A stretch of DNA of 64,000 nt from Lacticaseibacillus yichunensis (lineage in GTDB: Bacteria; Bacillota; Bacilli; Lactobacillales; Lactobacillaceae): positions 124,001 to 188,000 of the forward strand of contig NZ_RHOG01000001.1 in assembly GCF_003946405.1 (NCBI RefSeq), in the 5' to 3' direction. Position numbers and translations under genes: made by a program. Within the stretch, counting starts at the first letter, position 1, and each line of letters starts with the position of its first letter. Below the pieces are notes generated by a model, which did not search any database, had not been told where the DNA came from, and worked only from the letters and a program-made list of their open reading frames with translations. Below, in pieces: positions 9,613-41,440 of the stretch.

Positions 9613-9662
9613 CCATAAAAGCCTTCTGAAGGCACAGCAAACAGGCCGAAGCGTGCTCCGGC
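9613..9662 (-). terminator. tandem hairpins ending the minus-strand RNA
   Basis: On the minus strand AGGCCGGAGC/GCTTCGGCCT is followed 20 bases later by GCCTTCAGAAGGC-TTTTA. The first has a poor T-tract, the second a short one, so termination may be incomplete and the aldo/keto reductase could be read through. Confidence 0.5.
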
Positions 9663-9926
9663 CTGCCAAATTTTAGGTTGGATCCCTTTCCCTCTTCATT
9701 TTCGAGATTCCTCCCGTCGGTGTTAGGGAAACTTATTCAGTTAGAAATTGGGTGGTACATTTTTCCGGTACTTCCCAGTACCGGGTCCGTTTAAGCCCTT
9801 TGGGTCACCCCCTTACTGCAGGTAACCGTCATTGCGTCGCTCGGGGTGGGTCGCGGGTTGGCTCCCGCCGGACTGACCGACGCTGGGAGAGAACTCGTGG
9901 CAAGCTCCTCCACGCCTCTCAGTGTC
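9630..9926 (-). ncRNA. candidate structured RNA or long regulatory leader, unidentified
   Basis: A near-consensus promoter fires toward this ~300-base stretch, which has no long open frame but several strong hairpins, including a perfect CCGGTACT-GGGA-AGTACCGG stem (9765-9784 area) with a GNRA-type loop and a longer GC-rich 5' domain. Near the 3' end is a well-placed ribosome site (GGGAGG) ahead of an eight-codon frame reading MKRERDPT, then the tandem hairpins. I compared it by eye with tmRNA, RNase P, 6S, SRP, T-box and the main riboswitches and found no match. It may be a free RNA or the leader of the aldo/keto reductase gene. Confidence 0.5.
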
Positions 9927-9932
9927 GAAAAC

Positions 9933-9961
9933 AGTATAACGCCAGAAAACGCTATCGTCAA
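9933..9961 (-). promoter_or_regulatory. strong sigma-A promoter for the minus-strand RNA
   Basis: Minus-strand TTGACG (9956-9961), 17-base spacer, TATACT (9933-9938); start expected near 9926. Confidence 0.8.
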
Positions 9962-10185
9962 CTGTTTTGTGAATCTTTTTTCGCCGATCTCGCTTAATTA
10001 TTTCTTGCAACAAAAAGAGGGGTTCCCTCGTTGCTCCCAATTATCATCGTGTTTGTCTCAGTTAGCAGCCTAGGTTCTAGATACATATGAGTTTTTCGAT
10101 CTATACAAATTTCACAAGCCAATTGAATGACAAATAACGCTATTCGGTCTAAACTTTTTGGCAAACCAGGAAAGGAGTGATCAAA

Positions 10186-11007
10186 ATGGCGACCCAAAAG
10201 CAGATCATCACGTTGTATGGCTGGATTCTCGGCATCGTCAAAGCGGACATGATCGACCCTGTGACCAGCCACGTCACAACAGGCGTCTATGTAAAGATTG
10301 GCGCCGACTGGATGCAAGCCGGCGCAGACGAGTCCCGGCTTCCAATTGACTCGATCATTGTCTATATCGACGTGACCCCAGCCCTACTTCGACGAGACAT
10401 CTTCAGGATGGATATCGCCGGGATGAACAGTTTCACTGGTAAAGTCGCGGCGGCCTATCTCTCAGTATCCATGCCACAGACCAAATGGCGGCTGACTCGC
10501 CAGGCAGCTACAGCAAAGGAAATGATGCGGATCGAAGCGAGCTGGCTTGGCCGCCTCAAGAAAGCAAAAGACCTCGCCCCGCGTGACCTCACCCGGCTCG
10601 ATCGTCTCTATCTGCGTTACACGAATTCCGAGCTGACCCTCGACCAGCTTTATGACCTTCAAACAAAGCTCGTCAAACCCTACCGAGGCGGCCTGTCGCA
10701 CGAGTTGGTCGCAAAGCGGCGGGCCGAGCTCGCCCTCATCGAAGCGGACGATGCCAAAAACGGGGCGCCGGTGCCGCTTTTGCTCAATGCCAAGCCTGGC
10801 GACTGGTTGTATCAGGCGAAACTCGACGGCTGGGTCGATCCAAATTTCATTGAGAAACCAAATCTTGATTATGAGGCCAAGCTCACGCGGCTGATCGAGC
10901 GGCTTCAGGGCGAGGCCACTTACCGCGCGCGCAATCATGTGCCATTTTTCGAAGAAGGTGATCTGCCTCAGGATCTGAAACAACACCATTTTCAGCCGCA
11001 AAGCTAA
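10186..11007 (+). CDS. hypothetical protein, first gene of an unrecognised pair
   Basis: A 273-residue soluble protein with no signal peptide or membrane span. The N-terminal ~90 residues look like a beta-rich domain (ITLYGWILGIV, TTGVYVKIG, DSIIVYIDV); the rest is helical and charged (KAKDLAPRDLTRLDRLYLRY). No motif or family was recognised. ATG at 10186 has AAGGAG eight bases upstream; an in-frame GTG at 10177 sits on that site and was rejected. It is followed 21 bases later by another gene with its own ribosome site, and the pair shares one terminator. Confidence 0.75.
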   Translation: MATQKQIITLYGWILGIVKADMIDPVTSHVTTGVYVKIGADWMQAGADESRLPIDSIIVYIDVTPALLRRDIFRMDIAGMNSFTGKVAAAYLSVSMPQTKWRLTRQAATAKEMMRIEASWLGRLKKAKDLAPRDLTRLDRLYLRYTNSELTLDQLYDLQTKLVKPYRGGLSHELVAKRRAELALIEADDAKNGAPVPLLLNAKPGDWLYQAKLDGWVDPNFIEKPNLDYEAKLTRLIERLQGEATYRARNHVPFFEEGDLPQDLKQHHFQPQS

Positions 11008-15522: not shown

Positions 15523-15550
15523 TTGAGGGTGTAACCTGTGGATGTACAAA
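15523..15550 (+). promoter_or_regulatory. probable promoter of the fluoride-regulated enolase
   Basis: TTGAGG (15523-15528), 16-base spacer, TACAAA (15545-15550), just before the aptamer. The match is moderate. Confidence 0.5.
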
Positions 15551-15554
15551 CGAA

Positions 15555-16956
<1,402 letters not shown>

Positions 16957-16960
16957 AAAA

Positions 16961-17080
16961 GGGTGCGGCGCGCGGCGCTCTGGTCTGAGCAGCTAGGCTA
17001 GCCTGGCGCTTGGGGCGCACTTCGCCCCGAGTGACGGGCGTACCTAAATGTCTCAGACCTGCCGCGCGGAGCCCAACTGA
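16961..17080 (+). repeat. palindromic intergenic repeat, copy A
   Basis: Starts GGGTGCGG and ends GCCCAACTGA. Outer arms CGCGCGGC and TGGTCTGAG pair with CTCAGACC and GCCGCGCG; the apical stem CTTGGGGCG / CGCCCCGAG closes a five-base loop. Begins four bases after the enolase stop. Confidence 0.85.
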
Positions 17081-17117
17081 AACCATCTCATCGCTCATGT
17101 CACGTGAGCGCAACAGT

Positions 17118-22268: not shown

Positions 22269-22350
22269 GAAACGGTCGAGTTTGGCGCTATTGGTTGTCG
22301 CTTGTGCTGTTTCTGACGCGGGGCTGCTGACCGGGCTGGGGGCCCTCCCT

Positions 22351-22470
22351 ATTGGACTTCGCGTTCAGGTCTGAGGCATCTAACTGGGCCCGGCACTCGG
22401 GGCTAAGTTCAGCCCCCAAGCACCAGCCCCTGTTAGCTGCTCAGACCTGAACGCCGCGCGACGCACCCTT
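22351..22470 (-). repeat. palindromic intergenic repeat, copy B
   Basis: Minus orientation of the same family: GGGTGCGTCG start, arm GCGGCGTTCAGGTCTGAG pairing with CTCAGACCTGAACGC, apical GGGGGC/GCCCC region. The 3' boundary is degenerate (AAGTCCAATAGGGA). Lies between mntA and dps. Confidence 0.85.
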
Positions 22471-37358: not shown

Positions 37359-37441
37359 GATTTGTTTCCTCCAATATTCTGTGCTGTTTGACACGCATTA
37401 AGTTTCCGGGGCTTATTGTGGGGCAAACAATACCGTCTACT

Positions 37442-37482: not shown

Positions 37483-37604
37483 GGGTGTGGAGGCTCGCGT
37501 TTAGGGGTGGGCAGTTAGCTTAGCCTGGGTGCTTGGTGGCGCTCCTTGCCACCGAGTACCTAGGTCAGCTAAATGTCCCACCCCTGCGAGCCGGAACCCA
37601 ACTA
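37483..37604 (+). repeat. palindromic intergenic repeat, copy C
   Basis: GGGTGTGG start; arms CTCGCG and TTTAGGGGTGGG pair with CCCACCCCT and GCGAG; apical GCTTGGTGGC / GCCACCGAGT. Ends ACCCAACTAAA. Between the rplM promoter and truA. Confidence 0.85.
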
Positions 37605-37605
37605 A

Positions 37606-37635
37606 AGGGTGCGGTGCTCGCCAGAGCCCAACTGA
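37606..37635 (+). repeat. collapsed copy of the palindromic repeat
   Basis: GGGTGCGGTGCTCG followed at once by CCAGAGCCCAACTGA: only the two outer boundaries of the family remain, directly abutting copy C, as if the hairpin itself had been deleted. Confidence 0.7.
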
Positions 37636-40972: not shown

Positions 40973-41383
40973 GGGTGCGGAGCGCGGCGTTCAGGTCTGG
41001 GTAGCTAGTTCGGCTTAGGCGCTTGGTGGTGTACTTGGCCACCGAGTGCCTGAGTCGACTAGATATCCCAGACCTGCCGCGCGAAGCCCAACTGGAGGGT
41101 GCGGCGCCGAGCGCTTAGGGGTGGGCAGCTAATCTGGTTCTGGCGCTTGGGGCCGCACTTAGCCCCGAGTGACGGAACCAGTTAGATGTCCCACCCCTGC
41201 TCGGCGAAGCCCAACTGGAGGGTGCGGAGACCCGCGGGATGGTGGGTCAGCTAACTTGGCTAGGGTGCTTGAGGTGCCCTTCGCCTCGAGCATCCAAGCC
41301 AGTTAGATGTACCCACCATGCGGGCCGAAGACCAACTGGAGGGTGCGGCGCGCGGCGTTCAGGTCTGGGTAGCTAGTTCGGCT
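40973..41383 (+). repeat. tandem array of palindromic repeats, copies D1-D4
   Basis: Three full head-to-tail units (40973-41096, 41097-41219, 41220-41340; 124, 123 and 121 bases) and a fourth cut after ~43 bases. Each unit starts GGGTGCGG and ends (G/A)CCCAACTGGA or ACCAACTGGA. Outer arms differ completely between units yet pair within each: TCAGGTCTGGG/CCCAGACCT, TAGGGGTGGG/CCCACCCCT, ATGGTGGGT/ACCCACCAT. Fixed elements are (C)AGCTA, GCTTG, CGAG and TAGAT. Confidence 0.9.
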
Positions 41384-41440
41384 CGAATGCTTTTACCCCT
41401 TCCCCATCAGTTCGTTTGACCTCTTATCTAGCTCATAGAA

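What the first reader, a model, noticed from the sequence alone, without database searches (positions are those of the whole stretch)
40973..41383. Family of 121-124-bp palindromes with compensatory arm changes
Six full copies (16961, 22351 reverse, 37483, 40973, 41097, 41220) and two partial copies share fixed edges (GGGTGCGG; CCCAACTGGA) and small fixed motifs (AGCTA, GCTTGG, CGAG, TAGATGT). Their arms differ strongly between copies yet pair within each copy: TCAGGTCTGGG/CCCAGACCT, TAGGGGTGGG/CCCACCCCT, ATGGTGGGT/ACCCACCAT. Such covariation shows that the hairpin, not the sequence, is maintained. I know of no described lactobacillus repeat with this layout. Possible roles: hairpin mobile element (MITE or REP-like), structured RNA, or recombination substrate.
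Basis: partly seen in the sequence, partly recalled or inferred. Interest (0 to 1): 0.8.

Follow-up and report, generated by a model that had tools for sequence, protein, structure and literature searches.

The report
Dispersed hairpins after bacterial genes
The window holds copies of a roughly 122-base hairpin element that sits, often in tandem, between genes and often just behind them in lactobacilli and some relatives; its stem sequences keep being swapped while the hairpin shape is preserved, and what moves it and what it does are unknown.

Summary
Six full copies of a 121-124 nt hairpin lie where stated, plus a 5' part and a stem-less mini-copy. The stretches read of the host genome hold about 200 copies, mostly in same-strand tandem clusters. 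Pairing survives arm changes: 97.8% of cells paired against 79.9% shuffled and 30-39% slid. G-U exceeds A-C, so the + strand fold is favoured. Models find relatives in 29 of 30 genus, 84 of 201 family and 14 of 198 order genomes. The left edge lies within 8 nt of a co-directional stop codon in 24 of 105 clusters, the right edge in none. Against a sister species, left flanks are 95.6% identical, but 17 of 24 first hairpins are another type. Best reading: a non-autonomous mobile hairpin family that settles between genes, preferring gene ends, multiplies in tandem and exchanges units under selection on its fold. Mover and function are not shown. I found no match in Rfam or in my paper searches; Efa/EFAR of enterococci is the nearest known kind.

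The parts
40973..41096 (+). unit 1 of the tandem array, outer stem type GCGCGGC
   Evidence: cmsearch 127 bits; fold z -9.4
41097..41219 (+). unit 2, outer stem type GCCGAGC
   Evidence: cmsearch 130.2 bits; fold z -7.9
41220..41340 (+). unit 3, ATGGTGG-type second stem
   Evidence: cmsearch 109 bits; fold z -6.8
41341..41392 (+). 5' part of a fourth unit, 3'-truncated at the right end of the array
   Evidence: nhmmer model 1-52; the L. mingshuiensis array ends in a part of the same model range
41093..41096 (+). junction tag TGGA between units 1 and 2; the same tag recurs at 41216-41219 and 41337-41340
   Evidence: sequence; tags compared
16961..17081 (+). single unit, 4 nt behind the stop codon (16954-16956) of the second part of an enolase-like gene
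   Evidence: cmsearch 118.2 bits; context; Enolase_C
22347..22468 (-). single, lower-scoring unit between ZnuA-like and ferritin-like genes
   Evidence: cmsearch 85.5 bits; Pfam
37483..37606 (+). single unit between the L13 and tRNA pseudouridine synthase genes; its orthologous place holds another hairpin type in L. mingshuiensis
   Evidence: cmsearch 123.9 bits; comparison; Pfam
37607..37635 (+). mini-copy: left and right edges without the hairpin
   Evidence: read by eye

Best explanation
A family of roughly 122-nt, non-autonomous, MITE-like hairpin elements, spread through Lactobacillales. Shown: units of an array point the same way; the + strand folds into one long interrupted hairpin; both arms change together; the left edge, and not the right, favours the first bases behind stop codons and T-tracts; between sister species arrays differ in units and unit order while outer flanks stay. 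Inferred: a trans-acting enzyme, not identified, occasionally places a unit between genes, preferably at a gene end; tandem duplication and unequal or ectopic recombination then multiply and exchange units and stem modules; units whose single strand (RNA in a 3' UTR, or ssDNA during transfer) no longer folds are lost. A side effect on mRNA 3' ends is plausible but not shown.
For: Copy number 150, the scoring cap, in the whole genome; 202 matches in 570 kb of stretches chosen around copies, a few of them antisense or overlap duplicates. 0 of 105 clusters overlap a called gene. All 95 multi-unit clusters of two genomes are same-strand. Covariation in own, G006, genus, other genera and other families. 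The top 16 mutual-information pairs are all structure pairs, and a further pair 6-123 was found. G-U against A-C 580:45, or 159:45 without fixed wobbles; 96:31 and 52:16 in two other sets. Left edge behind a stop: 24/105, 11/41 and 12/35 against 1.2-1.8% of random intergenic positions and 0 of 181 right edges. Turnover: 24 loci, flank median 95.6%, first unit median 0.74; in 18 of 24 a non-orthologous copy is closer. First and second junction tags match over 6.56 nt on average against 1.73 permuted (48 arrays); left flank and first tag over 2.58 against 1.60 (90 arrays). The site behind the enolase-like gene is filled in own and L. mingshuiensis and has no element in the six relatives with an 82-84% identical gene.
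Against: No transposase, autonomous copy or clear terminal inverted repeat was found; no systematic search for an IS with such ends was made. Y1_Tnp is absent from the copy-rich G006, G011, G001 and G014, RVT_1 from G000, G021, G006, G011 and G001, though both occur in some other copy-rich genomes. No clean new insertion was seen between own and L. mingshuiensis: 34 of 39 clusters with a mapped flank pair with an element or remnant there, two of these pairs being spurious or duplicate, and the eleven I read were all occupied or remnants. Target-site duplication is only suggested: tags vary in length, are A-rich, and in 17 of 48 arrays the first two tags agree over 0-1 nt only. 67 of 105 own left edges are at neither a stop nor a T-tract. 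In the set mostly from other families the strand preference is 63:33 and vanishes (34:33) without fixed wobbles.
Confidence: 0.58

Rival explanations
1. A host-maintained 3' UTR RNA: the hairpin directly behind the stop codon shields the mRNA from 3' exonucleases or is cut by RNase III, and the host keeps it for that.
For: Left edge within 8 nt of co-directional stops (24/105, 11/41, 12/35); + strand fold with conserved G-U wobbles; upstream gene co-directional in 28 of 35 G006 clusters. The Efa authors cite preliminary unpublished data that Efa RNA may stabilise mRNA (PMC1590033, passages).
Against: In own only 46 of 105 and in G021 16 of 41 clusters have a co-directional upstream gene; 14 of 105 own and 10 of 35 G006 clusters sit behind a T-tract and would be transcribed only by read-through if it is a terminator. 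The one position tested, behind the enolase-like gene, is not conserved in the genus.
Confidence: 0.25
2. Substrate of a single-strand DNA recombinase, like integron attC sites or REP/RAYT: the folded + strand is the mobile form.
For: For the one unit tested the + strand also folds better as DNA (-45.4 against -35.6 kcal/mol); same-strand arrays; the own-type 3' edge GCCCAAC resembles the attC core RYYYAAC (consensus recalled).
Against: No matching GTT core at the other end, and the 3' edge is not kept in relatives. Y1_Tnp is present in 13 of 30 genus genomes and absent from four copy-rich ones.
Confidence: 0.12
3. Covariation by mutation alone: hairpin-templated repair copies one arm onto the other, with no selection on the fold.
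For: Stems change as blocks on both arms: in 10 of 250 close pairs of copies one stem differs by three or more compensated pairs, the second stem in 7.
Against: Such copying should make perfect palindromes, yet a fixed G-U wobble at the top of the outer stem persists (145 of 147, 73 of 79, 30 of 33 and 29 of 36 rows), and G-U exceeds A-C.
Confidence: 0.12
4. Retroelement copied through RNA, SINE-like, inserted at transcript 3' ends.
For: + strand constraint, placement at stops and T-tracts, short variable tags resembling the flank.
Against: No RVT_1 match in G000, G021, G006, G011 and G001. Partials keep the 5' part (27 of 31), opposite to what target-primed reverse transcription leaves.
Confidence: 0.04

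Closest known systems
Efa / EFAR elements of Enterococcus faecalis
   Same: Same bacterial order (recalled); intergenic stem-loop repeats, Efa-1 163 nt and 65 copies, preferentially near the 3' ends of genes (PMC2267715 and PMC1590033, passages); EFAR is listed among MITEs (PMC3733652, passage). From recall only: variable assembly of sequence types and insertion into stem-loops.
   Different: Efa-1 is predicted as a pair of adjacent stem-loops; here one long hairpin of about 122 nt is the unit. No EFAR sequence was available, so homology is untested.
BOX, RUP and SPRITE of Streptococcus pneumoniae
   Same: Small dispersed structured repeats, BOX with tandem inner modules, novel insertions now slow (PMC3049150, passages).
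   Different: BOX repeats boxB inside one element; here whole hairpins repeat. The word 'compensatory' does not occur in that paper's main text.
ERIC and NEMIS/Correia elements
   Same: ERIC folds as a single long stem-loop (PMC2267715, passages); 30 to 711 copies by species; Correia and ERIC transcripts can be cut by RNases (PMC10969869, passages).
   Different: Sequence is largely fixed in those families (recalled); here the arms are free but paired, units are tandem and left edges favour stop codons.
REP/REPIN with RAYT
   Same: Dispersed palindromes outside genes.
   Different: REPs are 20-40 bp (PMC3733652, abstract in listing); Y1_Tnp is absent from four copy-rich genomes.

Membership tests
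MITE | short, multi-copy, intergenic, strong secondary structure | tested here: met
MITE | terminal inverted repeats shared with a resident IS | tested here: inconclusive
   Edges pair over GGG/CCC and 6-123; no autonomous copy was noticed in the stretches read, and no IS-end search was made
MITE | target-site duplication | tested here: inconclusive
   flank against first tag 2.58 against 1.60 permuted, but variable in length and A-rich
MITE | new insertions against empty sites | tested here: inconclusive
   one site without element in six relatives; none between own and G021 among the eleven read
REP/REPIN-RAYT | a RAYT (Y1_Tnp) in copy-rich genomes | tested here: not met
   absent in G006, G011, G001 and G014, present in 13 of 30 genus genomes
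attC | GTTRRRY/RYYYAAC cores at both ends (recalled) | tested here: not met
   only the 3' edge of own-type copies resembles it, not kept in relatives
Retroelement | reverse transcriptase in the genome | tested here: not met
   no RVT_1 match in G000, G021, G006, G011, G001; other reverse-transcriptase models were not tried
Any Rfam 15 RNA family | match at gathering score | tested here: not met
   window; permissive scans of chosen loci gave only sub-threshold hairpin models and T-boxes
EFAR | sequence homology to published elements | not testable with these tools
   no EFAR sequence in the passages seen

The most novel reading that the evidence does not exclude
A selfish genetic element of a whole bacterial order that is inherited as a shape rather than a sequence: its fold is held by selection on one strand, its stem modules are exchangeable parts, and a dedicated, unknown pathway targets it to the ends of genes (stop codons and terminators).
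Probability: 0.25. Interest if true: 0.85.

Novelty: new variant of a known kind. Interest (0 to 1): 0.62.

Why it matters
Copies often lie at gene 3' ends, so they may affect expression, genome assembly and strain typing. The paired, swappable arms give natural replicate data on how structured repeats evolve. Finding what places them behind stop codons would be new biology.

Tried and rejected
RAYT/Y1_Tnp as driver: absent from four copy-rich genomes, present in others, 13 of 30 in all. Reverse transcriptase: no RVT_1 in five copy-rich genomes, but present in others such as G014, G028 and G010, 11 of 30 in all. Plasmid or phage carriage: no BLAST match for the window array. Growth only at the left end, CRISPR-like: suggested by 3'-truncated last units (24 5'-parts last, 0 partials first), but by my hand count of the tables unshared units lie on both sides (about 13 left, 18 right), so not supported. 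The pattern for mini-copies mostly hit ordinary right edges: of 52 hits only six are true minis by eye, and shuffles give 5.8 hits on average, so their number proves nothing. For R2 I read copies, mostly higher-scoring ones, from seven other genera of the family and nine of ten non-family genomes; the rest are unread.

Rows dropped or flawed: two of 26 mapped loci with a partial first unit; overlap duplicates of stretches L181/L182; one antisense match in G006. One of the 17 replaced loci (cluster 10) has a G021 unit cut by the stretch end, so its 0.53 is too low; another (cluster 7) compares units that are probably not counterparts. In one search pair 57 is spurious, and pairs 52/77 and 51/76 overlap. 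Cluster sizes count partial units. The gene caller was a home-made codon-usage script and misses some genes. The L. casei sRNA and supragenome papers (PMC8220740, PMC3496567; passages) showed no such element in the passages seen.

Full report
Observation. The window units start with GGGTG[CT]G, five of six after an A-ending flank or tag (the reverse copy too), and end in CCCAACT or close variants. In the 40973 array the tag TGGA recurs three times. Over 48 arrays of three or more units the first two tags agree over all 12 compared bases in 21 and over 0-1 base in 17, so sharing is common but not general.

Scale. The host is a Lacticaseibacillus close to L. mingshuiensis: its GH32 protein is 89% identical to that species (Pfam), the genome of that record behaves as the unnamed same-genus G021, with the same match coordinates, and own-G021 alignments run mostly at 91-97%. 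In the stretches read, 205 full and 22 partial copies lie in 107 clusters: 37 of one unit, 38 of two, 19 of three, 9 of four, 3 of five and 1 of six, partial units counted (two clusters are overlap duplicates, hence 105 elsewhere).

Structure. On 147 distinct copies 97.8% of cells pair; shuffling gives 79.9%, sliding 30-39%. The 16 strongest mutual-information pairs are stem pairs, and a new pair, 6-123, appears. Stem types are discrete: 36 outer-stem combinations, of which six hold 110 of 147 copies; outer, second and third stems make 124 distinct 5'-arm sets in 147 copies. In 10 of 250 close pairs of copies (18 or fewer differing columns) one stem differs by three or more compensated pairs, the second stem in 7. 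G-U outnumbers A-C 580 to 45, or 159 to 45 without fixed wobbles, so one strand is constrained. RNA and single-stranded DNA cannot be told apart by this: the three array units fold better on + as RNA, and the one unit tested also as DNA. In the set mostly from other families the excess is 63:33, and 34:33 without fixed wobbles.

Spread. Model R1 matches 25 of 29 other genus genomes and none of 30 from other genera. Model R2, built from genus-wide copies, matches 29 of 30 genus genomes, 84 of 201 sampled family genomes (nine of the 84 are of the own genus) in 20 of 40 genera, and 14 of 198 of the order, ten of them outside the family. The 184 order genomes without a match show that R2 does not simply ring on any hairpin. 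Copies read from other genera and families share the edge layout, and several are tandem. A TTAG-like bulge is seen in 81 of 147 own, 74 of 79 G006, 22 of 33 and 32 of 36 other copies, and CTT in the apical part in 122, 76, 23 and 20 of these. Edges co-vary between species, e.g. GGGC/GCCC and GAGC/GCTC.

Placement. No cluster overlaps a called gene (105 own; 35 G006). The left edge lies within 8 nt of a co-directional stop in 24/105, 11/41 and 12/35 clusters of three genomes, and behind a T-tract in 14/105, 5/41 and 10/35. Random intergenic positions give 1.2-1.8% and 2.9-5.0%. Right edges give 0 stops and six T-tracts in 181 clusters. In own nine left flanks end in TA, so that the first G of the element completes a TAG stop. 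The rest, 67 of 105 in own, 25 of 41 and 13 of 35 in the others, have no such landmark.

Turnover. At 24 loci with mapped left flanks (of 107 clusters; only 389 kb of G021 were read) the flanks are 95.6% identical in the median, and the first hairpin is either conserved (7 at 0.91-0.98) or of another type (17 at 0.53-0.76; random pairs 0.66); in 18 a copy elsewhere is closer. One of the 17 is understated because the G021 unit is cut by the stretch end. Window 37483 is an example: 790 bp of left flank 99.7% identical, hairpin 0.69. Of 34 cluster pairs, 19 share a unit at 0.90 or more by my count of the tables, often at another position, including order changes that look cyclic in pairs 47 and 88. 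So sites are stable while their units turn over. Loss of different units from larger ancestral arrays can explain part of this; copies up to 0.97 identical at other loci point to exchange between loci as well.

Mechanism and limits. I favour a MITE-like non-autonomous element with later tandem and ectopic exchange. The mover is unknown, and two candidates were tested and not supported. Host use as 3' UTR RNA is the main rival. Novelty rests on Rfam scans and nine paper searches in an open-licence library (a tenth was for BOX/RUP); subscription papers, including the EFAR paper, were not seen. Papers were seen as passages or search listings only.

Noticed in passing
window 15548-15611 + and 37381-37434 -: Fluoride riboswitch and ribosomal L13 leader, both above Rfam gathering score.
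   Followed up: no
window 15670-16248 and 16327-16956: Two ORFs, one with Enolase_N and the start of Enolase_C, one with the rest of Enolase_C; they look like two parts of one second enolase gene, which lies in one open frame of about 440 aa in G021.
   Followed up: partly
L269/L286 (one locus), L287, L288 (all G027): Copies in this genome are followed by a similar tail (gcgtaag, gcgtaaa or gcataag, then ccagaac), so the unit may be longer there.
   Followed up: no
L150, L177, L181, L188, L199: Recurrent left flank TTTTTTGATTCA behind T-tracts at different loci; it may be a target motif or an extended left end.
   Followed up: no
window 9628-11007: Besides its orthologous place, a second match at about 83% identity on another contig of G021.
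   Followed up: no
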